Assembly: GCA_013076295.1 (NCBI GenBank)
Contig: RQOL01000718.1
Location: 620,001-684,000, forward strand
DNA: 64,000 nt
Origin: Sanderia malayensis
Taxonomy: Eukaryota; Cnidaria; Scyphozoa; Semaeostomeae; Pelagiidae
Direction: 5' to 3'
The translations under genes were made by a program, and so were the position numbers. Below are positions 702 to 61,402 of the stretch, one piece after another; position 1 is the first letter of the stretch; every line of letters starts with the position of its first letter. The notes below the pieces were generated by a model that saw only the letters and a list, made by a program, of their open reading frames with translations, was not told the origin of the DNA and ran no database searches.

Positions 702-3700
702 GTCAACTTCGCATATTCCCATACAATACAACTAACTTCGTTCAAAATCAAGATGATTCTGAAACAATGATGTTTGTTATTCCTCCAATTCGGCTCAAAG
801 ATGCACAATACAGTGCAATCTTTGTAAGTAATAATGTCTATGAATTATGTTCCTTGCCTATTGTTTAAATTCGTTTTGATTTGTCATTTCTAAGAGCATT
901 TAAAGACAATGGCATGAAAATAAATTCTAATTTTCAATGCAAAATTCTTTGCAGATCTATACGAATGGTTACGTATCATTCCCAGCTATGCATAATAGCG
1001 CAACGCCTAGCTACCCCAGGAGTGTCGAGATATTGGCTCCTTTTTGGACGGATATTGACTTCAGAAATTCAAGCGGTGGTGTTGCTTACTCACTACACCA
1101 ACATACAGACACAGATTCATTCTCCCAGATGATAATAAACAAAACCAGCTTGTACATATCAGCCAGAACCAACGTCAACTTTTCTCCAACTTCGGTAATA
1201 CTCGTGACCTGGATAAAGGCCTTGCCCAAAAATTATTCTTCAAGCGCAGACAGAAACGAGGTATGTGAGTGTGCTTGGGTAATCGTTAATAATGGAAAAT
1301 CCTTGGTAGACTTTAAGACTATGTGATCTCTAAACACTTGATTATACTTTCTTTTCAGACAGTCACATTTCAATTGCATCTGGCTATGAATAATATTAAT
1401 ACATATGCATCATTTATATATGAAGATGGTGGCATGTTATGGAAGGATGTCAACCAAGTCCCTCAAATGCAAATTTCCTCATATAATAGCGTGGCTTTTA
1501 TAAAACTTGGTCCCACTGGGACTTATCCGTTTTATAGATTTGATACTGTGGTTGGAAACACAGGTAGAAAGGGAGAGTGGTTGTTTGATTTGTACAAACG
1601 TCGACCAATAATTCTGTCTCCAAGGCATCTGATCTTGTCCTATGGAAAAGAAAGCGATTTTCAAATTGAAGCAATCCCCCAATTTGTTGTAGAGTTAACC
1701 TATTCGATAAATGTAACTGGAATGTCTGCAACAGTGAATTCCACCAATGGATTAGTGACTCTGCGTGTGAACAGCCTTAACGTCACAATGACATTTATTG
1801 TGAAAGATGCAAACAATCAAACGAGCACGTTTCAACCAAAAATTACGTTGTGCAACTGCACGAGTGGCGCATATTGCAAAGCACCCATTGAAAACACTGA
1901 CATAACCTTTTCGAATCACTTCCTTACTTACGGAAAATGCTACTGTAACCTCGGTTACACTGGTAATGGTTTAAATTGCACTGACATTGACGAATGTACA
2001 ACTGGTCAACATTCATGCCTTGTTAATGCCACTTGCAACAATAACCCTGGCTCATACAAATGCGCATGTAGCTCTGGTTACACTGGCGATGGTTTTAATT
2101 GCGCTGACATTGACGAATGTGCAACTGGTGAACATTCATGCAGCAATAATTCCAACTGCACCAATAACCAGGCCTCATACACATGTGCTTGCAACTCTGG
2201 CTACACTGGTAATGGTTTTAATTGCACTGATATTGACGAATGTGCAACTGGTCAACATTCATGCCTTGTTAATGCCACTTGCAACAATAACCCTGGCTCA
2301 TACAAATGCGCATGTGGCTCTGGTTACACTGGCGATGGTTTTAATTGCGCTGACATTGACGAATGTGCAACTGGTGAACATTCATGCAGCAATAATTCCA
2401 ACTGCACCAATAACGAGGGCTCATACACATGTGCTTGCAGCTCCGGCTACACTGGTAATGGTTTTAATTGCACAGACATTGACGAATGTGCAACTGGTCA
2501 GCATTCATGCAGTAATAATGCCAATTGCAGCAATAACCAGGGCTCGTACACATGTACTTGCAACTCCGGTTACACTGGTAATGGTTTTAATTGCACCGAC
2601 ATTGACGAATGTACAATTGGTCAACATTCATGCAGTACTAATGCTACTTGTATCAATAACCCTGGCTCATACACATGTGCTTGTAACTCTGGTTACACTG
2701 GTAATGGTTTTAATTGCACAGACATTGACGAATGTGCAACTGGTCAGCATTCATGCAGTGTTAATGCCAACTGCACGAATAACCAGGGCTCATACATATG
2801 TGCTTGTAACTTTGGTTACAGTGGTAATGGTTTTAATTGCACTGACATTGACGAATGTGCAACTGGTCAGCATTCATGCAGTGTTAATGCTAATTGCACA
2901 AATAACCAGGGCTCATACACATGTGCTTGCAACTCCGGTTACACCGGTAATGGGTTTAATTGCACTGACATTGACGAATGTGCAACTGGTCAGCATTCAT
3001 GCAGTGTTAATGCCAATTGCACCAATAACCAGGGCTCATACACATGTGCTTGCAACTCCGGCTACACTGGTAATGGTTTTAATTGCACTGACATTGACGA
3101 ATGTGCAACTGGTCAACATTCATGCAGTAGTAATGCCACTTGTAGCAACAACCCTGGCTTATACACATGTGCTTGCAATTCTGGTTATACTGGAAATGGT
3201 TTTAATTGCACTGACATTGACGAATGTGCAACTGGTCAACATTCATGCAGTACTAATGCCACTTGTAGCAATAACCCTGGCTCATACACGTGTGCATGCA
3301 ATTCTGGTTACACTGGTAATGGTTTTAATTGCACAGACATTGACGAATGTGCAATTGGTCAACATTCATGCAGTGCTAATGCCACTTGTAGCAATAACCC
3401 TGGCTCATACACGTGTGCATGCAATTCTGGTTACACTGGTAATGGTTTTAATTGCACAGACATTGACGAATGTGCAATTGGTCAACATTCATGCAGTGCT
3501 AATGCCACTTGTAGCAATAACCCTGGCTCATACACGTGTGCATGCAATTCTGGTTACACTGGTAATGGTTTTAATTGCACAGACATTGACGAATGTGCAA
3601 TTGGTCAACATTCATGCAGTGCTAATGCCACTTGTAGCAATAACCCTGGCTCATACACCTGTGCATGCAATTCTGGTTACACTGGTAATGGTTTTAATTG

Positions 3701-4567
3701 CACAGACATTAACGAATGTGCAATTGGTCAACATTCATGCAGTACTAATGCTACTTGTATCAATAACCCTGGCTCATACACATGTGCTTGTAACTCTGGT
3801 TACAGTGGCAATGGTTTTAATTGCACTGACATTGACGAATGTGCAACTGGTCAACATGCATGCAGTGTTACTGCCAACTGCATAAATAACCAGGCCTCAT
3901 ACATATGTGCTTGTAACTCTGGTTACAGTGGTAATGGTTTTAATTGCACTGACATTGACGAATGTGCAATTGGTCAACATTCATGCAGTACTAATGCTAC
4001 TTGTATCAATAACCCTGGCTCATACACCTGTGTATGCAATTCTGGCTACACTGGCAATGGTTTTAATTGCACTGACATTGACGAATGTGCAACTGGTCAG
4101 CATTCATGCAGTGCTAATGCAGTTTGTACGAATGTCATTGGATCTCACGTTTGCAGTTGCATGAAAGGGTTCTTTGGTATTGGAACCCGTTGTGAAGGTA
4201 AGGTTTGTTGTGTATATCCATGTTTAATCTTCTTAGTTTTTGCAGTGTGTGATCGAATTGCAACTGTTCTGCACGGGTGTTTGGAAGTCATTACATTTAT
4301 CTTAGAATTATGTGTATTATAGACGTATATGGCGCAGATTGTTGTCAAAAACTGAACGATAGTGTGAATAATGCATCTCCATTTATTGCAGGCAATGCAA
4401 ATAAATTCACAATTGGTTATGGTATTGGTGTTGGTTTGGGATGGGCCGTTTTGATTGTTGTCAGTGTTGCAGTAGCAGTCTTTTATAAGCGCAGGAAGCA
4501 AGGCCAAGGTGACATAACTAAAAATATTGAGCCAGTCTCAAATGAAAAGTTTGAAATGGAAGCCTGA
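702..4567 (+). CDS. NEG1: NIDO-domain, 18x calcium-binding EGF, single-pass membrane protein (5' partial)
   Basis: The exons are 702-823, 955-1260, 1359-4197 and 4392-4567, all with GT-AG junctions and compatible phases (1, 0, 0, 1). The signal-peptide exon lies left of the window. Exon 955-1260 and the start of the next form a NIDO (nidogen-like) domain: the APFWTDID motif, then VTWIKALP, then TFQLHLA. A beta-sandwich-like linker with many N-glycosylation sites follows to about 1840. Next come one atypical EGF and 18 cbEGF repeats of 41 residues (123 nt) with DIDEC, the C-x-N-x4-Y-x-C-x-C hydroxylation consensus and GYTGNGFNC. The last exon gives a ~23-residue hydrophobic helix, a YKRRKQ stop-transfer and a tail of about 24 residues. 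The product is expected to be a type I surface protein with a calcium-stiffened rod. The ligand is unknown. An alternative last-exon start at 4323 would add a stalk of about 23 residues. Confidence 0.88.
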
Positions 4568-5468: not shown

Positions 5469-5469
5469 G

Positions 5470-6210: not shown

Positions 6211-6389
6211 TTTGCACAGCACACAGGAACAATTATTGTCCGTCCAATTTTTTATCATAGATTTGAAAAGAGACAGTATTGGGCAGCTTTTGAGCCCTAT
6301 GAGTGAGAGGTTCTGCCGAAGAGTTGCCCCCCTAAAGCATTGGTTCTCGGGGCTAAATTTAACAGTATAAATTAATATAATTATATATA

Positions 6390-6984: not shown

Positions 6985-7588
6985 AAACTAATTGCAACCA
7001 AAAATTACATTGTGCAGCTGCGTGAGTAGCGCATATTGCAAAGCACCTATTGAAAACACTGACTCTTCGAATCATTTCCTTACTTACGGAAAATGCTACT
7101 GTAAACTTGGCTACACTGGTAATGGTTTTAATTGCACTGACATTGACGAATGTGCAACAAGTCAACATTCGTGCAGTATTAGTGCTAACTGCACAAATAA
7201 CCCTGGCTCATATACATGTGCTTGCAACTCTGGATACACTGGAAGCGTGATTTTGAGCAATCAACATGTTTATCTTAATTTGATATTGATATTTAACCAT
7301 TTTATCTTAATTCCATATTATGTCGAACATTTAGGTTTATTTGCTTCAGTTATTTGTTTTTGAGGCTTATCCTCAGGATTTAAATTTGAAACAATTTAAT
7401 TTAACTTTTTACGTATTTTGTTGCATAAAGTTGATAAGCAGCGTGATGATAATGTTGTGTCAAGTTGCGTTGCTGTCATGCAGCACAGATCAACTGGGGT
7501 TAGATTTATAGATGCTTTTTATATGAAGCTTATATTTTATCATGAAGAACGAAGATGCTTAATCTTCAAACTTTGGATTGATGATTTG
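6985..7588 (+). pseudogene. Collapsed NEG copy: EGF stub fused to 3' flank
   Basis: Bases 6995-7240 encode the start of a NEG large exon: the PKITLC linker end, the first atypical EGF, and one cbEGF up to GYTG. At about 7240 the reading jumps directly into sequence equal to NEG2's end and 3' flank (AAGCGTGATTTTGAGCAAT, compare 20666). The deletion therefore removed the remaining EGFs, the last intron and the membrane exon; both partners carry TGG at the junction. The 3' flank continues to 7588, is interrupted by a retroelement, and resumes at 11643. NIDO and signal exons are absent. Confidence 0.85.
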
Positions 7589-15660: not shown

Positions 15661-18600
15661 ATGGCGTCTGGATTCTTTTTTCTGGTCTTTACCGTCATCA
15701 TCGCAATCTCTTTGGGGATCAACTCAGTATCAGGTAAGTTTTTCAACATTTTAAATTGAAACTTTTAAATAACCGTTGGTTTCTCTTTATTGCTGATTTT
15801 TTAACGTTGAAAGCAAATACACACGAATTCTGCTTATTTGCATTTACATGCTTGTTAAATTCAATTTAAGAAGGGTTAATATTCAAAATAAATTGCTTTG
15901 CCGCGTCAGGCACAGTTGTTACCATGTTTATATTGATATGGCATAATAAATATGAGTCTTTAAACATTTCTAATCAACATATCTATAATATCTGGGGTGG
16001 GAAGTAAGTATACAGGCCGTTGTCTGTTAAACTCGCGCAGAACGCTTGTTGGGTGAAACTGGGCAATCTAGCTGCACAGATGTAGTATCTTTTACGATTC
16101 TTCGCTAGAACTCAGAGAGTAAGCACAGTTTTTTCATGCTTTCTCGTTCTCTTGAATCCGATGAAGGATTCATGGGAAGTTCCTCGTCTATTGCCGTGCA
16201 GCTCACAATGCGATATAGCCAGTGTCCTCCATGGTCACTACTCAAGAAGGCCACATATACAAATTATCCCAGTGAGATCGTTTCTTAAGTAGTAGCAGAG
16301 TAATAATCATTTATTTTATATGCCGTATGAAGCTCGGCTTACCTTACTTAGTGCTTCTTTAGTCTACGTTAGCGTGGCCTACTTGCGACTTGGGTATAAA
16401 TTGCCTCATATAGACATTTATTGATTGGCTTGTCAATTATTGTGAGGGATCTAGACTTCTTGGGACGTCATTAACGTGGCCTATTTTACTGATCGTCTAA
16501 CTATTCATGGACCACCAGTGTTGTTTTATGTTGTCCCTGTTGATATTCTGCAACAGTACGCTTGTTTCATTTTCACATAACGCTGTTCCCCATTAGAATT
16601 TTGCTCATTGGCCAGTGTAAGTTTTAGCTTTAGGTTAATCTGTTTTGATTTCAATCTCTTCCGTTGGACATCGCCCTGCACTTATTGGAAAGATGAACTA
16701 TGGAGGGCATTGTTCTAAACAATAAGTTATCGAGTAAAATTGAACCAATCAGAGGTGATAAAGAAATGCATCATTAGATCATGCGCAGAATATGGTATAT
16801 TTACAACAAGGTAAGTCCTTAATGTATGGAAATTTTAATGTCCCCAATCAATATTCCCCTGCTGTATATATACAATTGCAGTCGTGTATAAGCATGTACA
16901 TGGTGTAAGTAGACCGTGTGTTAGGTGTTGTGGCTATATACTAGTGGTTCACGAGAGATTCTTGTGAAAATATGTAATCATAGTGGATAAAGGTAGTTTG
17001 TAGTGTGTATATATGCAGATAGATGTAGATAGGTATATAACAGTGCTGTACGAAAGACTCTTGCAAAAATATGTCGAGAATTTCACGGTCTGAACCCTTA
17101 TACTTTAAACAAGAATTACGCGGATATTACGATTTCTTAACCTCAAATAGAACCCCGGATTTTACCAGTAAAAATGCATAATTTATCTTATCCTGGTCAC
17201 GTGTCAGATCTTATATCCTATCTCTATTGTTCAAACACTGATTTCGTTTGAAATTTTTGGCAACATGAAAAGCGAAAGCTAAATCAGAATCCTCCGAAGA
17301 GGAAAAACTGACTTGTTGAACGTGTTTTAAAAGAATGTTTAGCTGTTCCCAATAAATATATACATTGCAACACTTTCACTCAATTTCACACCTTTTTGTT
17401 GCCGTCATCAAACAAAACAGTCGCCCAAGAAAACATCAAAGCTTCTTTTTCAAAATTTGTCAACGTAGTCATTTGTTGAAAAAATTCAAAGATATGATGA
17501 TTGCTGAAGCTTTAACATAAATTTCTTTTCCAGGTCAACAGCGTATGTTCCCATACAATACAACTCATTTTATTCAAAATCAAGATGATGCTTTTGGAGT
17601 AATGGAGCTTAATCCTGGAATTTCGTTCGAAGGAATACAACACACAAAAATCTATGTAAGCAATATTGACCATGAATTACAATGTTTCTTGCTTATTGCT
17701 TTGAATTTGTTTTGAGTTGTCATTTCTAAGAGCATTTAAAGACGATGGCATTAAAATATATTCTAAATTTAAATGCACAACTTAATTGCAGGTCTATACA
17801 AATGGCTACATAACATTGGGAGTAGAGTATTCTAGCGCAATACCTGTCCTGCTGGGCGACCGTAACATATTGGCTCCCTATTGGACGGATCTTGACTTCA
17901 GAAATTCAAGCGGTGGTGTTGCTTACTCACAACACAAACATACAGACACAGATTCATTCTCCCAGATGATAATAAACAAAACCAGCTTGTACATATCAGC
18001 CAGAACCAACGTCAACTTTTCTCCAACTTTGGTAATACTCGTGACATGGATAAAGGCTTTGCCAAAAAATTATTTTTCTAGCGCAGACACAAACGAGGTA
18101 TGTGAGCGCAATTATAGTGCTTGGGTAATCGTTAATCATGGAAAATCCTTGGTAGATTTTAACACTATGTGATCTCTAAACACTTGATTATACTTTCTTT
18201 TCAGACAGTCACATTTCAATTGCATCTGGCTATAAATAATATTAATAAATATGCATCATTTATATATGAAGTTGGTGGCATGTTGTGGAATGGTGTCAAC
18301 CAAGTCCCTCAAGCTGGAATTTCCTTCCAACCTATTTTTTTCCTTTCTTTTCCACTTGGTCCCACTGGGATTTATCCCTTTTACAGATTTGATACTCTGG
18401 TTGGGAACACAGGTAGAATTGGAGAGTGGCTGTTCGATCTAGTCAATTTTCCACCACTCATTCTCACTCCAAGGCATCTGATCTTGACCTATGGAGAAGT
18501 GAACAATTTTCAAATTAAAGCAACTTCACCCACTGCATCAGCTTTAATCTATTCGATAAATGGAACTGGAACTTCTGCAATGGTAATTTCGAGCAATGGA

Positions 18601-20672
18601 AATGTATCACTGAATGTGAGCAGCCTTAACGTCACAATGACATTTATTGTGAAAGATGGACAAGGTCAAACAAACCAATTGCAACCAAAAATTACATTGT
18701 GCAACTGCGTGAGTAGCGCATATTGCAAAGCACCCATTGAAAACACTGACTCTTCGAATCATTTCCTTACTTACGGAAAATGCTACTGTAAACTTGGCTA
18801 CACTGGTAATGGTTTTCATTGCACTGACATTGACGAATGTGTAACTGGCCAACATTCATGCAGCTCTACTGCAACTTGCACCAATAACCCTGGCTCATAT
18901 ACATGTGTTTGCAACTCTGGTTACACTGGTAGTGGTTTCAATTGCACTGACATTGACGAATGTGTAACTGGCCAACATTCGTGCAGTGTTAATGCCAACT
19001 GCAAGAATAACCCTGGCTCATACACATGTGCTTGTAACTCTGGATACACTGGTAATGGTTTTAATTGCACTGATATTGACGAATGTGTAACTGGCCAACA
19101 TTCATGCAGCTCTAATGCAACTTGTAGCAATAGCCCTGGCTCATACACATGTGCTTGCAACTCTGGTTACACTGGTAATGGTATTAATTGCACTGACATT
19201 GACGAATGTGTAACTGGCCAACATTCATGCAGCTCTAATGCCACTTGTAGCAATATCATTGGCTTATATTCATGTGCTTGCAACTCCGGCTACACTGGTA
19301 ATGGTTTTAATTGCACTGACTTTGACGAATGTGCAACTGGTCAACATTACTGCAGTGTCAATGCCAACTGCACCAATAGCCTTGGCTCATATACATGTGC
19401 TTGCAACTCCGGCTACACTGGTAATGGTTTTAATTGCACTGACATTGACGAATGTGCAATTGGTCAACATTCATGTGGTGCTAATGCCACTTGTAGCAAT
19501 AAACCTGGCTCATACACATGTGCTTGTAACTCTGGCTACACTGGTAATGGCTTTAATTGCATTGATATTGACGAATGTGCAATTGGCCAACATTCATGCA
19601 GCTCTAATGCCATTTGCACCAATATCCTTGGCTTATATTCATGTGTTTGCTACTCCGGCTACACTGGTAATGGTATTAATTGCACTGACATTGACGAATG
19701 TGCAACTGGTCAACATTTGTGTAGTACTAATGCCACTTGTAGTAATAACCCTGGCTCATACACATGTGCTTGCAACTCTGGTTTCACTGGTAATGGTTTT
19801 AATTGCACTGACATTGACGAATGTGCAACTGGTCAACATCCATGCAGTGCTAATGCCACTTGTACCAATTACCCTGGCTCATACAGATGTGCTTGCAAAT
19901 CTGGTTACACCGGTAGTGGTTTTAATTGCACTGATATTGAGGAATGTGCAACTGGTCAGCATTCATGCAGTGTTAATGCCAACTGCACCAATAAGCAGAG
20001 GTCATACACATGTGCTTGCAACTCTGGCTACACTGGTAGTGGATATAATTGCACAGACATTGACGAATGTGCAACTGGTAAACATTCATGCAGTAATAAT
20101 GCCACTTGTAGCAATATCCCTGGCTCATATACATGTGTCTGCAACTCTGGCTACACTGGTAATGGTTTTAATTGCACTGACATTGACGAATGTGCAACTG
20201 GTCAACATTCTTGTAGTGCTAATGCAGTTTGTACGAATGTTATTGGATCACACGTTTGCAGTTGCATGCAAGGGTTCTTTGGTACTGGAACCCATTGTAA
20301 AGGTGAGGTCTTTTGTGTATATCCATGTTTAATCTTCTTAGTTTTTGCAGTGTGTGATCGAATTTCAACTGTCCTGCACGGGTGTTTGGAAGTCATTACA
20401 TTTATCTTAGAATTATGTGTATTATAGACGCATATGGCGCAGATAGTTGTCAAAAACTGAACGATAGTGTGAATAATGCATCTCCATTTATTGCAGGCAA
20501 TGCCAATAAATTTTCTGCTGCTCATGGTATTGGCGTTGGCTTGGGAGTGGCCGGATTGATCGTCATCAGTGTTGCAGTGGCAGTCATTTATAAGCGCAGG
20601 AAGCAAAACCAAGGTGACATAACTAAACATGTCAAGCCAGTGTCAAATGAAAACTTTGAAATGGAAGCGTGA
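15661..20672 (+). CDS. NEG2: NIDO-domain, 12x cbEGF, single-pass membrane protein
   Basis: The exons are 15661-15733 (signal peptide [20 protein letters not shown]...), 17534-17655, 17792-18097, 18205-20302 and 20497-20672, giving about 924 residues. All junctions are GT-AG and in phase, and the ATG has a purine at -3. Exon 3 plus the start of exon 4 is the NIDO domain ([25 protein letters not shown]). A beta-sandwich-like segment, one atypical EGF and 12 cbEGFs follow. One repeat reads DIEEC and another DFDEC, mild departures from the calcium-binding consensus. The membrane exon has [21 protein letters not shown] and a tail ending FEMEA. An alternative acceptor (exon from 20428) would add a Cys-containing stalk. 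Intron 1 (1.8 kb) includes a block inverted in NEG3. It is the most complete small member and looks intact. Confidence 0.92.
16070..16535. repeat. Intron 1 block shared with NEG4 and inverted in NEG3
   Basis: The segment from AGCTGCACAGATGTAG to the TTGTTTTATG region matches 55852-56316 in direct orientation. It matches 34106-34574 as reverse complement. It contains a [12 protein letters not shown] reading on one strand, but no conserved splice context, so I do not call it an exon. Confidence 0.8.
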
Positions 20673-32037: not shown

Positions 32038-32110
32038 ATGTCGTTTAAGTTTATCCTTTTTGTTTGCACTATTATCATGGTAATATCTTTGGAGATTCGC
32101 TCATTATCAG
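32038..32110 (+). pseudogene. Orphan NEG-type signal-peptide exon
   Basis: It has exactly the same length (73 nt) and phase (ends ...TCATTATCAG|GTACAT) as the signal exons of NEG2, NEG3 and NEG4. The peptide begins MSFKFILFVCTIIMVISL and aligns with [19 protein letters not shown]. The intron start also resembles theirs (TTCAACATTATAAATTATAG against TTCAACATTTTAAATTGAAA). No NIDO exon follows before NEG3's own signal exon at 33579. It is either a relic of a lost copy or an alternative first coding exon of NEG3. Confidence 0.7.
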
Positions 32111-32159
32111 GTACATTATCATGCTTTTGTTCAACATTATAAATTATAGTTGTAAATAT

Positions 32160-33578: not shown

Positions 33579-36500
33579 ATGGCGTCTGGATTCTTTTTTC
33601 TTGTCTTTACCATCATCATTGCAATCTCTTTGGGGATCAACTCGGTATCAGGTAAATTTTTCAACATTTTAAATTGAAACTTTCAAGTAACCGTTGGTTT
33701 CTCTTTATTGCTGATTTTTTAACGTTGAACACAAATACACACTAATTCTGTCTATTTGCATTTACATGCTTTTTAAATGCAATTTAAGAAGGGTTAATAT
33801 TCAAAATAAATTGCTTTGCCGCGTCATGCACAGTTGTTATCATGTTTATATTGATATGGCATAATAAATATGATTCTTTAAACATTTCTAATCAACATAT
33901 TTATAATACCTGGGGTGGGGAGTAAGTATACAGGCCGTTGTCTGTTAATCTCGTGCAGAGCTTTTGTTGGGTGAAACTGGGTAATCTTCAGCTGGGTCCA
34001 AGGGTCAAAATGTACAGAAGATGGCGGCCATTGGAAAGGCTCCACGAACACTTGTGGTTCGTTTTTTTTATCTAGTTCTCAACTTGTTTTCAACTAGGAG
34101 ACAATAAAACAAGCCTTGTGGTACCTGAATAGCGGGACGATCAGTAAAATAGGCCAAGCTAATGACGACCCAAGAAGTCGAGATCCCTCACAATAATTGA
34201 CAGGCTAATCAATAAATGTCTAACGAGGCACTTTATACCCAAATCGCAAGTATAGATACGCTAACGTAGACTAAAGAAGCACTAAATACGTTAGGACTAG
34301 CTTGATACGGCATATAAAATAAACGATTATTACTCTGCTACTAATTAGTAAGAAACGATCTCACTGGGATAATTTGTATATGTGGCCCTAGTTGAGTAGT
34401 GGCCGTGGAGAACACTGGCTAGTCATGTATCGCATTGTGAGCGGTACGGCAATAGACGAGGAACTTCCCAAGAATCCTTCATCCGACTCAAAAGAACGAG
34501 AAAGCATGAAAAAAGTGTGCTTACTCTCTGAGTTCCGGGGAAGAATCGTAAAAAATAATATATCTGTGCAGCTAGATTCCCCTTGCAAAAGTTTGTGAAC
34601 AGCTCGAATTTTAGGCCCGGACCTAATTATTATTATTTAAACTTTGAAATTGGACACTTTTGCAGCAATATCGCGGACATTTTTGTCAATACTACAAAAA
34701 TCATTGCAGAAAACGTTGTTATTTTTTTGCATCTCTGTGTTTAATATTGACAAAGTTATAGGAACATTTCCGGGGCATGGCAAGGGGGAAGGAAAGTTGA
34801 TTTCAAGACCGAAATGAACGTTACTATCATGGAAAAATTGCGAAAGTTGCCAGATGCACAAAGACAAGTGCTTATAATATTATAAAAAAAGTTTCAGAAA
34901 ACAAGTTCTGTGACCGTGAACGATGGGACAGGCCGGCCTAAAAAGATCACAGAAAAGGAAGAACGAATTATGAAACGTAGCGCACGCGAAGATTGTGTAG
35001 GAACTTAGAAGTCGAGAAGAAAATTTACATAACAATATAAAAAGACCAAACGGGTTTCAATAGCGAATATATTCAGCATAAATATACTCAAAATTTCATA
35101 AAATTTCAAATGAAAACATAATTTAAACTATATCATATTGTTTTACAATAATATTAAAAGAAAACTGCAAAGAAGTCCCTTAAAAAATGTTCACGAAAAT
35201 TTATCGAAGTGGAGAAATTAAAACGCCAATAATTATATAATTTATTTCACTCAAAGCCACGCAAATTCTCTCTCATTTAAAAGAGGCTATCTCTAAAAGC
35301 AGGAACGAGGAACGAAACTGGGAACAAGTAGGAACGAGCGGGAACGAGTAGGAACGTGTAGGAACAAGTAGGAACGTGTAGGAACGAGTAGGAACAAGTG
35401 GGAATGAGTAGGAACAAGTGGGAATGAGTAGGAACAAGGCGGGAATTACCAATAACACATGCACACGGGATTAATTGTTGGCGGGAAAGTATTCGTTTGC
35501 CATTTTTCTCAGACAAAACTACGTTTTTGGATTTGAATAATGTTTCGCTTGCCAACTATTCCAGCAAGAGTAAATAAAGGGGTGGAGAAGGTTTCAGAGC
35601 TGCACAGATTTGATGCCAGAAAAATCCATGATGCAATTCCAATAGGTATTATTCCAAAATATTCTCAGTTTCTTTTTGTAGGTTCTTGGCTACGGCCTAG
35701 TTACTTAAGTTGTATTAATTACAGTGTCAAATTTTATTATTATTCACTGGAATAGGAGTTAAGATGCCAACTGCTCGTTTTCCAGGCCACGGTTCTTTTG
35801 CTTCAGTGGAGAAATGTCAATACAAATGTCAAATCACCGTAACTAACCCGGGGTGACAAACCCAGGTTATTTGTGTCCACACTACAAAATCTAACCTGGA
35901 TTAGCAAAAAACTGGGGCAAGCCTGTGTTAGTTTGCGTAGTGTGGACTGGGCTTATGTTCTTCTTATTATTATAATCATATCATTTTCTGTCGTTTTGTT
36001 GAAAAGCAGCATGTGCTTGGGATCTTCTGAAAATTTTATGTTTGGAAAACAATAATTTTCTACAAAAAGAATTTGTTCACTCTTTTCAGAAAATTTTCGA
36101 GGTTTGCTGTTGTTTTTTCTATGTTCTGTTTTGTCAGTATTAGATATGTATCCGTGAGCAATATTGTTTTTTTCTCTGTTCTCGGTAATTTCCGCCTTGT
36201 TTCTATTTGTTCCCGTAGATTCCCGTGCCAACAGAATGTTCTGAAGAATTTTCTTAGGCCACTAATAAGCTATCAATATTAACAAATAAAAGAGCAAAAT
36301 TTGAGGTATTTATTGTAGATTATCCTTGAAACCTGATTTCTAAGAAGTCAGCAATATTTTTCCTTGCTAGAATTTTCAAAACCTTAGAAATGTTTTTGGG
36401 TCGCCCGGCATTTGAAACAAACATTTTTGAAGAAACGTCTTCTTATCTGAGCAAATGGCAAACGAATGTTTTCCTGCCGATATTTAAGCCCTGTCCATGT

Positions 36501-39500: not shown

Positions 39501-42500
39501 ATTTTATCAGAATCGACTTCCGAAAATGTGCATTTAATTGTTAGCTTCCACGATTTTTGAAAATTCTATGACGTCATGGCAAATATGACGTCATAGCTAA
39601 CTTTTATAGAAGCACTATAACGAAAATAATTTTGTTGGAAAACACTAAATTGATGACCCTGATCACGAATTTGCAGTTTTTAGAAAGCTGCCATGCTTGA
39701 TAATTAGCATACTCATAGTTTTCCCATCGAGGACTGGGTTCAAATGCTTCAGTCCAAAAATAGAGTTTAGAGGCAAATTTCGATTGGGGTCTCGACCCTA
39801 TATTTTTCAGCGTGACGAACTCTCCATGTATGCCAAGTTTCATGTTGATATCATAAAATGCACAATTGTGACGCTAAGCTCCCCCACTATTTGAAATTCC
39901 TCTGTCAGACGTTTTCATAGCCCTTACGGTGGCTTCATTTCCGTCCGTTCGTGGAGGCTGTATATTTATGTTCTTGTTACTGGATAAAATACAGCAAGCT
40001 CGGAGGTTATCTTAAATCAACTAATCAAAGTATGCATAAAACATTCACTTGTAAAGTTCAATATGAGGCTAGCTCAACATGAGGCTATTTACACTAATTC
40101 GCGCATTTACGCACTTTGTTGGATCACCATGAATGGAAAATGGCTCTGTTGACTGGTGAGTGTTCAAACACTGATGTCATTTGAAATTGCTGGCAATATT
40201 CGAACCAAAAGCTAAATTGCAATCCTACAAAGAGGACATGTTAACTTGTTGAACGCGTCTTACAAGAATGTTTAGCTGTTCCTAATAAATATATACATTG
40301 CAGCACTTTTTCACTCAATTTTACACCTCTTGCTGCCGTCGTCAAATAGAATAGTCGCCCAAGAAAACATCAAGGCTTAACTATTTTAAAAATTTTCAAC
40401 GTATCTTTTGAACGAAATCAAAAATATGATTGAAGTTTCAATATAAATTGATTTTCAGGTCAACTTCGCATATTCCCATACAATACAACTAACTTCGTTC
40501 AAAATCAAGATGATGCTGAAACAATGATGTTTGTTAATCCTCCACTTCGGCTCAAAGATGCACAATACAGTGCAATCTTTGTAAGTAATAATGTCTTTGA
40601 ATTATGTTCCTCGCCTATTGTTTGAATTCGTTTTGATTTGTCATTTCTAAGAGTATTTAAAGAGGATGGCATGAAAATAAATTCTAATTTTCAATGCAAA
40701 ATTTATTGCAGATCTATACGAATGGTTACGTATCATTCCCAGCTATGCATAATAGCGCAACGCCTAACTATCCCAGGAGTATCGAGATATTGGCTCCTTT
40801 TTGGACGGATCTTGACTTCCGAAATTCAAGCGGTGGTGTTGCTTACTCACTACACCAACATACAGACACAGATTCATTCTCCCAGATGATAATAAACAAA
40901 ACCAGCTCGTACATATCAGCCAGAACCAACGTCAACTTTTCTCCAACTTCGGTAATACTCGTGACCTGGATAAAGGCCTTGCCAAAAAATTATTCTTCTA
41001 GCGCTGACAGAAACGAGGTATGTGAGCGCAATTATAGTGCTTGGGTAATCGTTAATAATGGAAAATCCTTGGTAGACTTTAAGACTATGTGATCTCTAAA
41101 CACTTGATTATACTTTCTTTTCAGACAGTTACATTTCAATTGCATCTGGCTATGAATAATATTAATACATATGCATCATTTATATATGAAGATGGTGGCA
41201 TGTTGTGGAAGGATGTCAACCAAGTCCCTCAAATGCAAATTTCCTCATATAATAGTGTGGCTTTTATAAAACTTGGTCCCACTGGGACTTATCCGTTTTA
41301 TAGATTTGATACTGTGGTTGGAAACACAGGTAGAAAGGGAGAGTGGTTGTTTGATTTATACAAACGTCGACCAATAATTCTGTCTCCAAGGCATCTGATC
41401 TTGTCCTATGGAAAAGAAAGCGATTTTCAAATTGAAGCAATCCCCCAATTTGTTGTAGAGTTAACCTATTCGATAAATGTAACTGGAATGTCTGCAACAG
41501 TGAATTCCACCAATGGATTAGTGACTCTGCGTGTGAACAGCCTTAACGTCACAATGACATTTATTGTGAAAGATGCAAACAATCAAACGAGCACGTTTCA
41601 ACCAAAAATTACGTTGTGCAACTGCACGAGTGGCGCATATTGCAAGGCACCCATTGAAAACACTGACATAACCTTTTCGAATCACTTCCTTACTTACGGA
41701 AAATGCTACTGTAACCTCGGTTACACTGGTAATGGTTTAAATTGCACTGACATTGACGAATGTGCAACTGGTCAACATTCATGCCTTGTTAATGCCACTT
41801 GCAACAATAACCCTGGCTCATACAAATGCGCATGTAGCTCTGGTTACACTGGCGATGGTTTTAATTGCGCTGACATTGACGAATGTGCAACTGGTGAACA
41901 TTCATGCAGCAATAATTCGAACTGCACCAATAACCAGGCCTCATACACATGTGCTTGCAACTCTGGCTACACTGGTAATGGTTTTAATTGCACTGATATT
42001 GACGAATGTGCAACTGGTCAACATTCATGCCTTGTTAATGCCACTTGCAACAATAACCCTGGCTCATACAAATGCGCATGTAGCTCTGGTTACACTGGCG
42101 ATGGTTTTAACTGCGCTGACATTGACGAATGTGCAACTGGTGAACATTCATGCAGCAATAATTCCAACTGCACCAATAACCAGGCCTCATACACATGTGC
42201 TTGCAACTCTGGCTACACTGGTAATGGTTTTAATTGTACTGATATTGACGAATGTGCAACTGGTCAATACTCATGCAGTGCTAATGCTACTTGTTCCAAT
42301 AACCCTGGCTCATACGCATGTTTTTGCAATTCTGGTTACACTGCTAATGGTTCAAATTGCACTGATATTAACGAATGTGCAACTGGTCAACATTCATGCA
42401 GTGCTAATGCCACTTGTAGCAATAACCCCGGCTCATACACGTGTGCTTGTAACTCCGGCTACACTGGTAACGGTTTTAATTGCACTGACATTGACGAATG

Positions 42501-45438
42501 TGCAACTGGTCAACATTCATGCAGTACTAATGCCACTTGTAGCAATAACCCTGGCTCATACACATGTGCTTGTAACTCTGGTTACAGTGGTAACGGTTTT
42601 AATTGCATTGACATTGACGAATGTGCAACTGGTCAACATTCATGCAGTACTAATGCCACTTGTAGCAATTACCCTGGCTCATACACATGTGCTTGCAACT
42701 CCGGCTACACCGGTAATGGTTTTAATTGCACTGACATTGACGAATGTACAACTGGTCAACATTCATGCAGTACTAATGCCACTTGTAGCAATAACCCTGG
42801 CTCATACACATGTGCTTGCAACTCCGGCTACACCGGTAATGGTTTTAATTGCACTGACATTGACGAATGTACAACTGGTCAACATTCATGCAGTACTAAT
42901 GCCACTTGTAGCAATAACCCTGGCTCATTCACATGTGCTTGCAACTCCGGCTACACCGGTAATGGTTTTAATTGCACTGACATTGACGAATGTACAACTG
43001 GTCAACATTCATGCAGTACTAATGCCACTTGTAGCAATAACCCTGGCTCATACACATGTGCTTGCAACTCCGGCTACACCGGTAATGGTTTTAATTGCAC
43101 TGACATTGACGAATGTACAACTGGTCAACATTCATGCAGTACTAATGCCACTTGTAGCAATAACCCTGGCTCATACACATGTGCTTGCAACTCTGGTTAC
43201 AGTGGTAATGGTTTTAATTGCACTGACATTGACGAATGTGCAACTGGTCAACATTCATGCAGTACTAATGCCACTTGTAGCAATAACCCTGGCTCATACA
43301 CATGTGCTTGCAACTCCGGCTACACCGGTAATGGTTTTAATTGCACTGACACTCATGAATGTGCAACTGGTCAGCATTCATGCAGTGCTAATGCAAATTG
43401 CAGCAATAACCCTGGCTCGTACACATGTACTTGCAACTCTGGCTACACTGGTAATGGTTTTAATTGCACTGACATTGACGAATGTGCAACTGGTCAACAT
43501 TCATGTACGGCTAATGCTACTTGTACCAACATCCCTGGCTCATACAAATGTACTTGTAACTCTGGCTACACTGGTAATGGTTTCAATTGCACCGACATTG
43601 ACGAATGTGCAACTGGTCGGCATTCATGCAGTGTTAATGCCACCTGCACGAACAACCACGGCTCATATACATGTGCTTGCAACTCTGGCTACACTGGTAA
43701 TGGTATCAATTGCACTGACATTGACGAATGTGCAACTGGCCAAAATTCATGTACTGCTAATGCTACTTGTACCAACATCCCTGGCTCATACAAATGTACT
43801 TGTAACTCTGGCTATACTGGTAATGGTTTTAATTGCACCGACATTGACGAATGTGCAATTGGTCAGCATTCATGCAGTGTCAATGCCAATTGCACCAACA
43901 ACCAGGGCTCATACACATGTGCTTGCAACTCCGGATACACTGGCAATGGTTTTAATTGCACTGACATTGACGAATGTGCAACTGGTCAGCATTCATGCAG
44001 TGTTAATGCCAATTGCACCAATATCCAGGGCTCATACACATGTGCTTGCAACTCCGGCTACACCGGTAATGGTTTTAATTGCACTGACATTGACGAATGT
44101 GCCACTGGTCAGCATTCATGCAGTGTTAATGCCAATTGCACCAATATCCAGGGCTCATACACATGTGCTTGCAACTCCGGCTACACCGGTAATGGTTTTA
44201 ATTGCACTGACATTGACGAATGTGCAACTGGTCACCATTCATGCAGTACTAATGCCACTTGTAGCAACAACCCTGGCTCTTACACATGTGCTTGCAATTC
44301 TGGTTATACTGGAAATGGTTTTAATTGCACTGACATTGACGAATGTGCAACTGGTCAGCATTCATGCAGTACTAATGCCACTTGTAGCAATAACCCTGGT
44401 TCGTACATATGTGCTTGTAACTTTGGCTACACTGGTAATGGTTTTAATTGCACTGACATTGACGAATGTGCAACTGGTCAACATTCATGCAGTACTAATG
44501 CCACTTGTAGCAATAACCCTGGCTCATACACGTGTGCATGCAATTCTGGTTACACTGGTAATGGTTTTAATTGCACAGACATTGACGAATGTGCAACTGT
44601 TCAACATTCATGCAGTACTAATGCTACTTGTACCAATATCCCTGGCTCATACACATGTGCTTGCAACTCTGGCTATACTGGTAATGGCTTTAATTGCACT
44701 GACATTGACGAATGTGCAACTGGTCAACAATCTTGCAGTACTAATGGCACTTGCAGCAATAACCATGGCTCATACACGTGTGCATGCAATTCTGGTTACA
44801 CTGGTAATGGTTTTAATTGCACTGATATTAACGAATGTGCAACTGTTCAACATTCATGCAGTACTAATGCTACTTGTACCAATAACCCTGGCTCATACAC
44901 ATGTGCTTGCAACTCTGGCTACACTGGTAATGGTTTTAATTGCACTGACATTGACGAATGTGCAACTGGTCAACATTCATGCAGTGCTAATGCAGTTTGT
45001 ACGAATGTCATTGGATCTCATGTTTGCAGTTGCATGAAAGGGTTCTTTGGTACTGGAACCCATTGTAAAAGTAAGGTTTTTTGTGTATATCAGTGTTTAA
45101 TCTTCTTAGTTTTTGCAGTGTGTGATCGAATTGCAACTGTCCTGCACGGGTGTTTGGAAGTCATTACATTTATCTTAGAATTAATTGTATTATAGGTGCA
45201 TGGCGCATATAGTTGTCAAAAACTGAACGATAGTGTTAATAATGCATCTCCATTTATTGCAGGCAATGCCAATAAATTCACTACTGGTTATGGTATTGGT
45301 GTTGGCTTGGGATGGGCCGTTTTGATTGTTGTCAGTGTTGCTGTAGCAGTCATTTATAAGCGCCGGAAGCAAAACCAAGGTGACATAACTAAAGATGTCA
45401 AGCCAGTCTCAAATGAAAAATTTGAAATGGAAGCCTGA
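33579..45438 (+). CDS. NEG3: NIDO-domain, 27x cbEGF, single-pass membrane protein
   Basis: The exons are 33579-33651 (signal peptide), 40459-40580, 40712-41017, 41125-45070 and 45263-45438, giving about 1540 residues. The NIDO and linker exons are nearly identical to NEG1. The large exon holds one atypical EGF and 27 cbEGFs; one repeat has DTHEC instead of DIDEC, and at 42241-42363 a divergent repeat reads GYTANGSNC. Several adjacent repeats at 42745-43236 are virtually identical at the DNA level. The membrane exon ([21 protein letters not shown]) matches NEG1. Intron 1 is 6.8 kb and loaded with insertions. Linking the signal exon at 33579 to this body is inferred from phase and order. The stalk-type acceptor usable in NEG1, 2 and 4 is out of frame here because 2 bases are missing near 45196. 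Confidence 0.88.
34106..34574. repeat. Intron 1 block inverted relative to NEG2 and NEG4
   Basis: Landmarks run in reverse complement: AAAACAAGCCTTGTGG at the left and CTGTGCAGCTAGA at the right, against 55852-56316 and 16070-16535. The flanking intron 1 sequence up to GGGTGAAACTGGG is collinear, so an inversion or opposite-orientation insertion occurred at this site. Confidence 0.85.
35024..37108. mobile_element. Foldback-type element with minisatellite inside its inverted arms
   Basis: The outer arms (35024-35290 and about 36855-37108) are inverted copies (TTTACATAACAAT... to CCAAACGGG; GGAGAAATTAAAACGCCAAT). Just inside, both arms carry a ~10-bp minisatellite, GGAACRAGTA on the left (35300-35440) and its complement on the right (36525-36680). 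The arms continue to ATTCGTTTGCCATTT at about 35500, with its partner near 36450. The core of about 840 bases has no recognised gene. The right arm is further interrupted by a small palindrome at 36708-36860. Long inverted arms built of tandem repeats are characteristic of foldback elements; the class assignment is by structure only. Confidence 0.75.
37189..39337. mobile_element. Outer Mutator-like element with 10-bp target duplication
   Basis: The ends are inverted repeats of ~60 bp starting TAGACTCATTACATGGCGTC. The sequence GGAGTGTATC flanks both sides (37179-37188 and 39338-39347). Without the nested insert it is about 1.12 kb, the size of the related copy at 27955-29096, to which its interior is reverse complementary. 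Long TIRs plus 9-11 bp duplications fit Mutator-like elements. I see no transposase, so it is likely non-autonomous. It lies in NEG3's first intron. Confidence 0.85.
38260..39276. mobile_element. Inner Mutator-like element with 9-bp target duplication
   Basis: A 1017-bp element with the same terminal motif (TAGACTCATTACATTGCGTC) is inserted in the outer element near its right end. ATAAGTCCC flanks it at 38251-38259 and 39277-39285. The inverted ends extend to about 90 bp (CCTCGCTCGC; GTCCATAAGTCC; GACAGTTTTTGA). The interior differs from the outer element, so it is a second subfamily using the same ends. Confidence 0.88.
39348..40458. other. Remainder of NEG3 intron 1
   Basis: From about 40141 onward it is collinear with bases 421-701 of the window (NEG1 intron 1). 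Between 39348 and 40140 I recognise nothing specific. Confidence 0.5.
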
Positions 45439-54751: not shown

Positions 54752-54769
54752 TATGTTGCTTACGCATTA

Positions 54770-55446: not shown

Positions 55447-55851
55447 ATGGCGTCTGGATTATTTTTTCTGGTCTTTACCGTCACCATCGCAATCTCTTTG
55501 GGGATCAACTCAGTATCAGGTAAATTTTTCAACATTTTAAATTGAAACTTTCAAGTAACCGTTGGTTTCTCTTTGTTGGTGATTTTTTAACGTTGAAAGC
55601 AAATTTACATTAATTCTGCCTATTTGCATTTTCATGCTTGTTAAATGCAATTTAAGAAGGGTTAATATTCAAAATTGCTTTGCTGCGTCACAGATGTTAT
55701 CATGTTTATATTGATATGGCATAATAAATATGAGTTTTAAACACTTTTCATCAACATACCTTACCTTTAATACCTGGGGTGGGGAGTAAGTATACAGGCC
55801 GTTGTCTGTTAGTCTCGTGCAGAACGCTTATTGGGTGAAACTGGGCAATCA

Positions 55852-57509: not shown

Positions 57510-60500
57510 ATCGTGAAATACCATATGTATGCAATAAACTACAAAGCATGAAATTCCTTACCGGGTGAAACCATTCCTCGTGTGACATGAAATAAAACTT
57601 AGTTTCAATAAAAACACATATTATTATATATGTGTTATTATGTTACTAAACTAAATATGTAATAACATAATATAATTATGGTTACTAACATAACATATGT
57701 GCTATTATTAAACACACACTTTTAGTAACGTCGACTTTTACATTCAATTCCACACCTTCTGCCAATAGAACATCGCCCAAGAAAACATCCAAGCTTAACC
57801 TGTTTTAAATATTTTCAAAGTATATCTTGAAAAAATTCAAAAATATGATAAAAGTTTTAATATAAACTGCTTTTTCAGGTAAACTGCGCATGTTCCCATA
57901 CAATACAACTAATTTCATTCAAAATAAAGATGATGGCCATGGAATTATGGAAATTAATCCTGGAATTCTGATCGGAAATATAAGATACACAAAAATCACG
58001 GTAAGCTACCTTAATTAACGTTTACAACATCTATTGTCTAACTTTTAAATATGCTTTGTCTTTTCATTTCAAAGAGCTTTTAAAGCGATGCCAGCTATAG
58101 AACTATAGGCTGAATTTAATAGGAAGAATTTGCTCCCTTCTCCCTGTAGGCTTCTGTAAATGGCTTGATATATTTGGGAATGCGGTATATGGCTCCTGAC
58201 TATACACCTGACATGCTATCTGGCTACGAAATAATGGCTCCCTATTGGTCGGATATTGACATGAGAGGTTCAAGCGGTGGTATTGCTTACTCACAACACA
58301 GAAATAGTGACACAGACTCATTCTCCCAGACGATAATGAACGAGACCAGCTCGTACATATCAGCCAGAACCAACGTCAACTTTTCTCCAACTTTGGTAAT
58401 ACTCGTGACCTGGATAAAGGGATTTCCATATCCTAGTAGTTCTTACGTAAATACAAACGAGGTTTGTGACAGCAACTATAGCACTTGTATGAACTTTGAT
58501 AATGCAATACCCTAGTTAGACTTTAAGAGCGTGATCCCGATATTTGATTATACTTTCCTTTCAGACTGCCACCTTTCAATTAAATCTGGCTACGAATAAT
58601 CACAGTACATACGCATCATTCATATATGAAGATGGTGCCATGTTGTGGAAATATACCAGCAAAACTCCTCACGTTGGATTTTCCTTAAATAAGAACATAC
58701 TTGATTTGGTGCTTGGTGAGACTGGGATTCCCTCTTATAGATTTGATACTGTTGTTGGAAACACAGGTAGAAAGGGAGAGTGGCTGTTCGATGTAATCAA
58801 TTTTCCACCTGTCATTCTGTCTCCAAGGCATCTGATCTTGTCCTATGGAGAAGTGAACAATTTTCAAATTAAAGCAACTTCACCCACTGCATTAGCTTTA
58901 ACCTATTCGATAAATGGAACTGGAATCTCTGCAACAATGAATTCGACAAATGGAATTGTATCACTGCATGTGAACAGCCCTAACGTCACAATGACATTTA
59001 TTGTGAAAGATGCAAACAATCAAACAAGCAAGTTTCAACCCAAAATTACGGTGTGTGCCTCTGGTTACTCTTGGGATGGTTTTAATTGCACTGACACTGA
59101 CGAATGTGCAACTGGTCAACATTCATGCAGTACTAATGCCACTTGTGGCAATAACCTTGGCTCATACACATGTGCTTGTAACTCTGGTTTCACTGGTAAT
59201 GGTTTTAATTGCACTGACATTGACGAATGTGCAACTGGTCAACATTCATGCCTTGTTAATGCCACTTGCAACAATGACCCTGGCTCATACAAATGCGCAT
59301 GTAGCTCTGGTTACACTGGCGATGGTTTTAATTGCGCTGACATTGACGAATGTGCAACTGGTGAACATTCATGCAGCAATAATTCCAACTGCACCAATAA
59401 CCAGGCCTCATACACATGTGCTTGCAACTCTGGCTACACTGGTAATGGTTTTAATTGCACTGACATTGACGAATGTGCAACTGGTCAACATTCATGCAGT
59501 ACTAATGCCATTTGTCGCAATAACCCTAGCTCATACACATGTGCTTGTAACTCTGGCTACACTGGTAACGGTTTTAATTGCACTGACATTGACGAATGTG
59601 CAACTGGTCAACATTCATGCAGTACTAATGCCACTTGTGGCAATAACCCTGGCTCATACACATGTGCTTGTAACTCTGGTTACAGTGGTAATGGTTTTAA
59701 TTGCACTGACATTGACGAATGTGCAACTGGTCAACATGCATGCAGTGTTACTGCCCACTGCACCAATAACCAGGGCTCATATATATGTGCTTGCAGCTCT
59801 GGCTACACTGGTAATGGTTTTAATTGCACTGACATTGACGAATGTGGAACTGGTCAACATTCATGCAGTACTAATGCCATTTGTCGCAATAACCCTAGCT
59901 CATACACATGTGCTTGTAACTCTGGTTACAGTGGTAATGGTTTTAATTGCACTGACATTGATGAATGTGCAACTGGTCAACATTCATGCAGTACTAATGC
60001 CACTTGTGGCAATAACCCTAGCTCATACACATGTGCTTGCAACTCTGGTTACAGTGGTAATGGTTTTAATTGCACTGACATTGACGAATGTGCAACTGGT
60101 CAACATTCATGCAGTACTAATGCCACTTGTGGCAATAACCCTGGCTCATACACATGTGCTTGCAACTCTGGTTACAGTGGTAATGGTTTTAATTGCACTG
60201 ACATTGACGAATGTGCAACTGGTCAACATGCATGCAGTGTTACTGCCAGCTGCACCAATAACCAGGGCTCATACACATGTGCTTGTAACTCTGGTTACAG
60301 TGGTAATGGTTTTAATTGCACTGACATTGACGAATGTGCAACTGGTCAACATTCATGCAGTGCTAATGCCACTTGTGATAATAACCCTAGCTCATACACA
60401 TTGTGCTTGCAACTCTGGTTACAGTGGTAATGGTTTTAATTGCACTGACATTGACGAATGTGCAACTGGTCAACATTCATGCAGTACTAATGCCACTTGT

Positions 60501-61402
60501 GGCAATAACCCTAGCTCATACACATGTGCTTGCAACTCTGGCTACACTGGCAATGGTTTTAATTGCACTGACATTGACGAATGTGCAACTGGTCAACATG
60601 CATGCAGTGTTACTGCCAACTGCACCAATAACCAGGGCTCATACACATGTGCTTGTAACTCTGGTTACAGTGGTAATGGTTTTAATTGCACTGACTTTGA
60701 CGAATGTGCAACTGGTAAACATTCATGTAGTACTAATGCCACTTGTGGCAATAACCCTGGCTCATACACATGTGCTTGCAACTCTGGCTACACTGGTAAT
60801 GGTTTTAATTGCACTGACATTGACGAATGTGCAACTGGTCAGCATTCATGCAGTGCTAATGCAGTTTGTACGAATGTCATTGGATCTCACGTTTGCAGTT
60901 GCATGAAAGGGTTCTTTGGTATTGGAACCCGTTGTGAAGGTAAGGTTTGTTGTGTATATCCACGTTTAATCTTCTTAGTTTTTGCAGTGTGTGATCGAAC
61001 TGCAACTGTCCTGCACGGGTGTTTGGAAGTCCAACTGCGCAGTTACATAATCAGTCCATATATAGATAAAATAGTAGCAATAATAATGATAACAAAGATA
61101 AAGATGCGAGTCATTTCAACAGTCATTACATTTATCTTAGAATTATGTGTATTATAGATGCATGTGGCGCAGATAGTTGTCAAAAACTGAACGATAGTGT
61201 GAATAATGCATCTCAATTCATTGCAGGCAATGCCAGTAAATTTTCTGCTGCTCATGGTATTGGTGTTGGCTTAGGAGTTGCCGGATTGATCGTCATCAGT
61301 GTTGCAGTGGCAGTCATTTATAAGCGCAGGGAGCAAAACCAAGGTGACATAACTAAACATGTCAAGCCAGTCTCAAATGAAAAATTTGAAATGGAAGCGT
61401 GA

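What the first reader, a model, noticed from the sequence alone, without database searches (positions are those of the whole stretch)
702..61402. Tandem family of NIDO-cbEGF-TM receptors with different rod lengths (18, 12, 27, 15 repeats)
Four paralogs in one orientation share a signal exon, NIDO exon and membrane exon, but differ strongly in the number of 41-residue cbEGF repeats. Seen directly: the repeat counts, the phases and the shared exons. Known: tandem cbEGFs form calcium-stiffened rods, and NIDO domains occur in extracellular matrix and surface proteins. Inference: the cluster generates surface proteins differing in reach and sequence, as expected for an adhesion or self/non-self recognition locus.
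Basis: partly seen in the sequence, partly recalled or inferred. Interest (0 to 1): 0.78.

Follow-up and report, generated by a model that had tools for sequence, protein, structure and literature searches.

The report
Jellyfish surface proteins, length-variable calcium-EGF stalks
A jellyfish chromosome carries a row of genes for cell-surface proteins that share one design, a divergent nidogen-like head on a stiff calcium-EGF stalk, and the stalks grow, shrink and swap units much like repetitive DNA; this looks like an adhesion or recognition family, but no such function has been shown.

Summary
Four same-strand genes encode a NIDO/Ig-like head, 18, 12, 27 and 15 cbEGF repeats in one intronless exon, and a TM exon. 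Corrections: the signal exon of gene 1 lies upstream of the window; gene 4 is frameshifted in repeat 11; a fifth member (9 repeats) lies inverted 19-25 kb to the left. The assembly fits the jellyfish Sanderia malayensis. The family is related to a MUC4-like protein whose EGFs lie in separate exons and share 47% identity; here they share 82% and are mixed between genes. Genes 1 and 3 have nearly identical heads but 18 versus 27 repeats, so stalk length turns over faster than the head. Stalk repeats are under purifying selection (dN/dS 0.26); heads show 0.82-0.96, with divergent patches beyond intron divergence. A test for positive selection (2dlnL 23.0) falls to 1.3 once rates vary among sites, so self/non-self recognition is unproven. 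A sister gene joins the same kind of head to a ZP domain, so egg-coat adhesion is an open rival. Three annotated models skip the arrays. New variant of a known kind.

The parts
702..823 (+). Gene 1 exon a (start of NIDO region); signal exon lies upstream of the window (C675:615814-615887)
   Evidence: splice borders and homology
955..1260 (+). Gene 1 exon b, NIDO
   Evidence: PF06119
1359..4197 (+). Gene 1 exon c: end of NIDO, Ig-like segment, EGF-like linker, 18 cbEGF repeats (from 1977)
4392..4567 (+). Gene 1 TM and tail exon
6985..7588 (+). Deleted remnant of a gene-2-like copy: linker and one EGF fused to the 3' end of a TM exon
   Evidence: 97.5% to 18672-18790 and 92.9% to 20662-21005; junction read
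15661..15734 (+). Gene 2 signal-peptide exon
   Evidence: identical to the start of EukProt model P0001
17534..17655 (+). Gene 2 exon a
17792..18097 (+). Gene 2 exon b, NIDO
18205..20302 (+). Gene 2 exon c, 12 cbEGF repeats (from 18820)
20497..20672 (+). Gene 2 TM and tail exon
32038..32111 (+). Second signal-like exon of the type used by the inverted gene 5; orphan or alternative first exon of gene 3
33579..33652 (+). Gene 3 signal-peptide exon
   Evidence: 96% to that of gene 2
40459..40580 (+). Gene 3 exon a
40712..41017 (+). Gene 3 exon b, NIDO
41125..45070 (+). Gene 3 exon c, 27 cbEGF repeats (from 41743), 3946 bp without an intron
45263..45438 (+). Gene 3 TM and tail exon
55447..55520 (+). 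Gene 4 signal-peptide exon
   Evidence: 92% to that of gene 2
57879..58000 (+). Gene 4 exon a
58150..58461 (+). Gene 4 exon b, NIDO (92% at protein level to inverted gene 5)
58565..60939 (+). Gene 4 exon c, 15 repeats (from 59087), linker deleted, one-base insertion near 60,400, stop at 60428
61227..61402 (+). Gene 4 TM and tail exon, downstream of the frameshift

Best explanation
A tandem family of membrane-anchored adhesion/recognition proteins: signal peptide, NIDO and Ig-like head, EGF-like linker (deleted in gene 4), a calcium-stiffened rod of 9-27 cbEGFs of which the last, membrane-proximal one is distinct and conserved, one TM helix and a short tail. Shown: the anatomy in DNA; kinship with an intron-rich MUC4-like gene; rod repeats behaving as a coding minisatellite whose 123-bp in-frame unit is gained, lost and exchanged within and between genes while under purifying selection; heads that differ in divergent patches. 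Inferred: the line lost the AMOP/VWD/C8_3 part and the EGF introns, after which intronless near-identical units could misalign, so that each unequal exchange changes reach by whole repeats without breaking the frame. Inferred: the head binds a partner on another cell, gamete or matrix, and the rod sets the distance at which it does so.
For: Counts and exons; signal and TM exons. 75 internal units (of 81): pN 0.085, pS 0.275, dN/dS 0.26; 72 of 75 with full consensus. Unit divergence within genes 0.118, between genes 0.126. Identical units shared by genes 1, 3 and 4, although the head exons of 1/3 and 4 differ by dN 0.2-0.45. Genes 1 and 3: head dN 0 to 0.032 per exon, but 18 versus 27 repeats, with only 10 units alignable in order. 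The last repeat is distinct (mean 0.32 from internal units) and differs by 0-6.5% between the five genes. In the MUC4-like relative the 8 cbEGFs share 47% and, in the C435 copy, lie in separate open segments. Stalk model resembles EMR2/Notch calcium rods. Among the 83 matches returned for the 123-bp unit, runs of more than three units lie only at this cluster (a lower bound).
Against: No transcript, protein, ligand or expression data. The EukProt models of genes 2, 3 and 5 splice around the array, so use of the full exon c is not proven. Head model unusable (pLDDT 42), so the divergent patches could not be placed on a surface. Only one of five stalk models was confident, and the two best structural matches (NELL1, NELL2) have rmsd above 11, that is other bends between domains. 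Gene 4 is frame-broken. Within-gene units are slightly more alike than between genes (11 of 2000 label shuffles reach the difference). Blocks 1-2 and 3-4 could be unmerged haplotypes.
Confidence: 0.6

Rival explanations
1. Self/non-self (allorecognition) locus: heads diversified by selection and paired with variable stalks mark individuals.
For: Patches of the head exons of genes 1/3 versus 2 differ by 35-53% of sites while intron 2 differs by 3-5%; M2a beats M1a by 2dlnL 22.97 without rate variation; tandem cluster with a deletion remnant and fast stalk turnover.
Against: With two rate classes 2dlnL is 1.28 (p 0.53), and 9 of 35 null simulations reach it; dN/dS intervals include 1; no polymorphism data; Sanderia polyps are not known to me to be colonial (recalled).
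Confidence: 0.15
2. Gamete or egg-coat proteins: in design like abalone VERL, ascidian CiVC57/HrVC120 and tectorin-like ZP proteins, with no ZP domain in this cluster.
For: The sister gene model P0010 has three NIDO modules, ZP-C (E 1.4e-28) and a TM exon 53% identical to that of gene 2/4; EGF-ZP egg-coat proteins, and VERL with homogenised repeats beside positively selected ones, are described (PMC9265791, passages); ZP protein at the jellyfish oocyte contact plate (PMC3504029, passages).
Against: No room for a ZP domain between EGF exon and TM exon in the window genes (intron 3 is 192-287 bp by the coordinates); no expression data.
Confidence: 0.25
3. Ordinary epithelial glycocalyx or mucin-like adhesion proteins whose heads drift under weak constraint and whose stalk length is near-neutral minisatellite noise.
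For: dN/dS near 1 in heads, broken gene 4 and a deletion remnant, stop codons in sister modules M4 and M8; MUC4-like kinship.
Against: All five heads are open although distinct ones share only 60-68% of residues, and they align with whole-codon gaps only; stalk and TM/tail are clearly constrained.
Confidence: 0.35
4. Partly an assembly artefact: genes 3-4 are the second haplotype of genes 1-2 placed in series.
For: Two colinear blocks of about 35 kb, most aligned pieces 91-97% identical; haplotig-like contigs of another NIDO gene exist (C435/C370, main pieces 97.5-98.7%).
Against: No N in 134 kb; the 5.6 kb between the blocks matches neither outer flank; one segment is displaced; identity is lower than in the haplotig-like pair; the published assembly used FALCON_unzip, Pilon and a step that labels redundant sequence (PMC7305137, passages).
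Confidence: 0.15

Closest known systems
MUC4 / mucin4-like transmembrane proteins (NIDO-AMOP-VWD-EGF-TM)
   Same: NIDO head, a related post-VWD Ig-like segment, EGFs, single TM; a relative (P0007) from the same protein set carries NIDO, VWD and C8-3_MUC4
   Different: The window sequences scanned lack AMOP, VWD and C8_3 and have a long intronless homogenised EGF array
[quoted passage not shown]
   Same: Tandem repeats homogenised by concerted evolution beside a faster-evolving N-terminal part; rod-like (PMC9265791, passages)
   Different: VERL repeats are ZP-N-like, not EGF; no NIDO; positive selection reported there, not robust here
Ascidian CiVC57 and HrVC120 (EGF repeats and ZP; PMC9265791, passages)
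   Same: Long EGF arrays on egg-coat proteins; CiVC57 has 24 EGFs and a C-terminal TM
   Different: ZP domain there, none in the window genes; no NIDO head described in the passages seen
EMR2/CD97, Notch and NELL cbEGF rods
   Same: Calcium-binding EGF tandems; closest solved structures by sequence and by model
   Different: Different heads, anchors and signalling; EGF number in EMR2/CD97 differs by splicing (recalled), here by gene
Nidogen, SNED1
   Same: NIDO plus EGF domains (recalled)
   Different: No other nidogen or SNED1 domain in the four window sequences scanned; these genes have a TM exon
Hydractinia Alr and Botryllus fuhc allorecognition genes
   Same: Clustered surface proteins of invertebrates (recalled)
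   Different: Different domains (recalled); polymorphism and function untested here

Membership tests
Calcium-binding EGF rod proteins | Tandem EGFs with D-x-D/N-E-C and C-x-N-x4-Y/F-x-C-x-C and short linkers | tested here: met
   72 of 75 internal repeats full consensus, 75 of 75 six Cys (5 terminal repeats and 1 frameshifted repeat of the 81 left out); PF07645 in 18 and 12 stretches of genes 1 and 2
Calcium-binding EGF rod proteins | Extended calcium-stiffened rod | tested here: inconclusive
MUC4-like (NIDO-AMOP-VWD) | NIDO domain | tested here: met
   E 3.7e-22 and 8.5e-19 in genes 3 and 2; NIDO exons of all four genes in the genome search
MUC4-like (NIDO-AMOP-VWD) | AMOP and VWD domains after NIDO | tested here: not met
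   None in the four window sequences scanned, from genes 1-3; in all five genes exon c runs from NIDO straight into the Ig-like segment. Relative P0007 has VWD and C8-3_MUC4; AMOP was not detected there
ZP egg-coat / tectorin-like proteins | ZP module before the TM helix | tested here: not met
   No room between exon c and TM exon in genes 1-4 (coordinates); present in sister model P0010
Nidogen/SNED1 | NIDO plus G2F, YWTD or FN3 domains (recalled) | tested here: not met
   Not found in the four window sequences scanned, from genes 1-3
VERL-like concerted evolution | Repeat arrays homogenised while the N-terminal part diverges under positive selection | tested here: inconclusive
   Homogenisation between genes seen; divergence of heads seen; positive selection not robust
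Allorecognition locus | High polymorphism among individuals that goes with acceptance or rejection | not testable with these tools
   One assembly only
Allorecognition locus | Diversifying selection on the binding domain | tested here: inconclusive
   2dlnL 22.97 without, 1.28 with rate variation among sites

The most novel reading that the evidence does not exclude
A recognition locus in which specificity (patches of the NIDO head) and reach (rod length) evolve separately by two DNA mechanisms: heads kept apart in mosaic patches, and an intronless in-frame EGF minisatellite shared between genes that resets stalk length and the pattern of glycan sites (T- and N-type repeats) within short times, possibly with spliced rodless forms as a third setting.
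Probability: 0.18. Interest if true: 0.82.

Novelty: new variant of a known kind. Interest (0 to 1): 0.5.

Why it matters
It is a clear case of a protein stalk whose length is set by a coding minisatellite with intact frame and calcium sites, next to heads evolving in another way, in an animal outside Bilateria. It makes a question testable: does the reach of a surface receptor vary among individuals, and does it matter? It also shows how repeat-rich exons can vanish from a gene set: the three models of these genes that I could see omit the array.

Tried and rejected
Positive selection on heads: suggested by M1a/M2a in my own implementation, withdrawn after adding two rate classes and a small parametric bootstrap (35 of at most 60 replicates finished in time). 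Split into three segments, the test without rate classes gave 2dlnL 6.54, 2.03 and 5.39, with rate classes 2.11, 0.00 and 0.65. Structure of the head: pLDDT 42, not used. N-glycosylation as a special feature of the rod: my first count (73 sequons in 75 units) missed those across unit borders; on joined arrays there are 136 against 104 in shuffles, but without N-C-[ST] only 54 against 89, so the excess is the one N-C-T at each border and I draw no conclusion. Relatives in other animals: three protein searches returned, apart from P0006 and P0009, only EukProt models of one gene-numbering style; the search needs shared 5-letter words and similar lengths, so this is not evidence of absence. Papers: searches for NIDO with sponge (1 paper), with Cnidaria and allorecognition (2 papers) and with jellyfish or EGF (10 of 800 listed) showed no paper on such a family, as far as titles, listed abstracts and the passages I opened tell; only open-licence PMC was searched. 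Rfam: no match in the window. The bacterial promoter scan has no bearing on an animal gene. A first identity count for P0007 repeats was out of register and was redone. The DSL family search was my mistake for a cnidarian marker and was not used.

Dropped from counts: 5 terminal repeats and the frameshifted repeat in the 75-unit counts; the frameshifted repeat was kept on its first 86 bases (76 internal units). The selection tests used heads of 5 C675 genes and, in the larger set, 4 of 8 C817 modules (M1, M2, M5, M6); M3 lacks the Ig-like part, M7 has no exon c assigned, and M4 and M8 are partial and carry stops.
Full report
What is there. The window is G000:C675:620001-684000 of a 184,004,477-bp assembly in 918 contigs. 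Four genes on the + strand share four exons in the window: exon a (start of the NIDO region), exon b (NIDO), exon c (end of NIDO, an Ig-like segment, an EGF-like linker that gene 4 lacks, and all cbEGF repeats) and a TM/tail exon. All borders are GT-AG with the same phases. Repeat counts are 18, 12, 27 and 15, spaced 123 bp with one 124-bp step in gene 4. Exon c of gene 3 is 3946 bp without an intron. Signal-peptide exons were found with the start of a EukProt model: three lie in the window, that of gene 1 at C675:615814-615887. Gene 4 is shifted by one base in repeat 11 and stops at 60428. A fifth gene with 9 repeats lies inverted at C675:595024-601122. A remnant with one EGF lies at 6985-7588.

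Which animal. EukProt model P0001 is 99% identical to gene 2; the tool does not name its species. Assembly size fits Sanderia malayensis: 184,371,355 bp in 970 scaffolds, scaffold N50 4.68 Mb (PMC7305137, passages); the window's contig is 5.64 Mb. I take the species as very likely, not proven.

Kinship. PF06119 gives 19 exon matches in the genome, on C675 (7), C817 (6), C859 (3), C435 (2) and C370 (1). C435 and C370 are near-identical copies of one gene (main pieces 97.5-98.7%). EukProt model P0007, which I take to be one of the two, carries NIDO, VWD, C8-3_MUC4 and 8 cbEGFs and ends in what reads as a TM helix and tail; in C435 the EGFs lie in separate open segments. Its segment after VWD is 42-45% identical to the window's Ig-like segment and linker. 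So the window family is related to MUC4-like proteins but lacks VWD. Exon c joins NIDO directly to that segment and has no EGF introns; loss through a spliced copy is one possible route (inference). The C817 cluster has signal-[NIDO-Ig-EGF3] modules, the third without Ig; model P0010 shows three NIDO modules, ZP-C and a related TM exon, and leaves out the EGF exons.

Stalk evolution. The 75 internal repeats analysed (of 81; 5 terminal and 1 frameshifted left out) have pN 0.085 and pS 0.275, dN/dS 0.26; 72 keep the full calcium and hydroxylation consensus. Mean divergence is 0.118 within and 0.126 between genes; 11 of 2000 label shuffles reach this difference, so there is a slight but real gene signal in what is otherwise nearly one pool. 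Units are identical across genes: g1_02 = g3_04 = g4_03, g1_11 = g3_23, g1_18 = g4_15. Internal units of genes 2 and 5 have no match within 3.3% in any gene, so recent turnover is seen in genes 1, 3 and 4 only. Repeats fall into linked classes, T19/P24 (44 of 75) and N19/Q24 (16 of 75); 50 of 75 fit the Notch-type O-fucose consensus C2-x4-[ST]-C3 (this form of the consensus is recalled). P0007 repeats share 47%, these repeats 82%. Genes 1 and 3 have head dN of 0.032, 0.017 and 0 in exons a, b and c, but 18 and 27 repeats, of which 10 align in order. Whether they are duplicates or, less likely, alleles, length differs by 9 repeats while the head barely changed.

Head evolution. Three pairs of distinct heads tested (2-3, 2-5, 3-5) have dN 0.225-0.290 and dN/dS 0.82-0.96, bootstrap intervals including 1. 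Divergence is patchy: genes 1/3 versus 2 differ by 35-53% in some 40-column windows of exons a, b and c, by 3-5% in intron 2 and by 8-25% in intron 1. Synonymous sites are also divergent (dS about 0.25), so the pattern is a mosaic, best read as local gene conversion around older divergent segments. M2a beats M1a by 22.97 (5 heads) and 16.46 (9 heads), but with two rate classes the gain is 1.28 and 1.79, and 9 of 35 null simulations reach 1.28. I therefore do not claim positive selection. TM exon ratios are 0.21-0.51.

Structure. A four-repeat model (pLDDT 78.6, one good model of five) matches CD97, EMR2 and Notch EGF tandems, and NELL with other bends; sequence search gives NELL2, Notch1, CD97, uromodulin and fibrillin among 22 matches. 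The head could not be modelled.

Duplication. Blocks C675:607.6-641.4 kb and 647.0-682.1 kb are colinear, most pieces at 91-97%, the heads of genes 2 and 4 at 76%. The spacer matches neither outer flank and there is no N in 134 kb. A real two-gene tandem duplication is likelier than serial haplotypes, but reads are needed.

Annotation. Models P0001 (gene 2), P0005 (gene 3) and P0002 (gene 5) splice from three different positions inside exon c to the TM exon and omit the array. The donor motif of P0001 is absent from genes 1, 3 and 4, that of P0005 is present in all four window genes. Masking before gene prediction is described for this species (PMC7305137, passages), so I read the skips as an annotation artefact, but real rodless isoforms are not excluded.

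Verdict. The recognition reading is one of three open ones, together with egg-coat/gamete adhesion and a general glycocalyx role.

Noticed in passing
window 18655-18675, 41320-41338; gene 5 at C675:595-598 kb: EukProt models of genes 2, 3 and 5 skip the EGF array from three different donor positions; likely a masking artefact, possibly rodless isoforms.
   Followed up: partly
window 32038-32112; C675:612960-613034: A second, diverged signal-peptide exon stands upstream of the usual one in genes 3 and 1; the inverted gene 5 has this type. Alternative first exons or duplication scars.
   Followed up: partly
G000:C817:795324-803764: A gene with three tandem NIDO modules with EGFs, a ZP domain and a related TM exon: here the head itself is repeated, another way of lengthening the protein.
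   Followed up: partly
window 46448-46915 and 49103-50650: Broken pieces of an LTR-type retroelement (gag-like below its cut-off, reverse transcriptase, RNase H) between genes 3 and 4; part of it recurs near gene 1 (5469-5895).
   Followed up: partly
G000:C675:3993629-3996508: A distant EGF unit and a related TM exon 3.3 Mb away, perhaps another family member; no NIDO match was returned there.
   Followed up: no
G000:C859:5648001-5658000 and 5750001-5760000: Two copies about 100 kb apart of a more distant NIDO-EGF gene, 95% identical over 7 kb.
   Followed up: no
window 1261-1326 and 4198-4322: Exon b and exon c of gene 1 each read on in frame past their splice donors for about 20-40 codons, which would give soluble forms if unspliced.
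   Followed up: no
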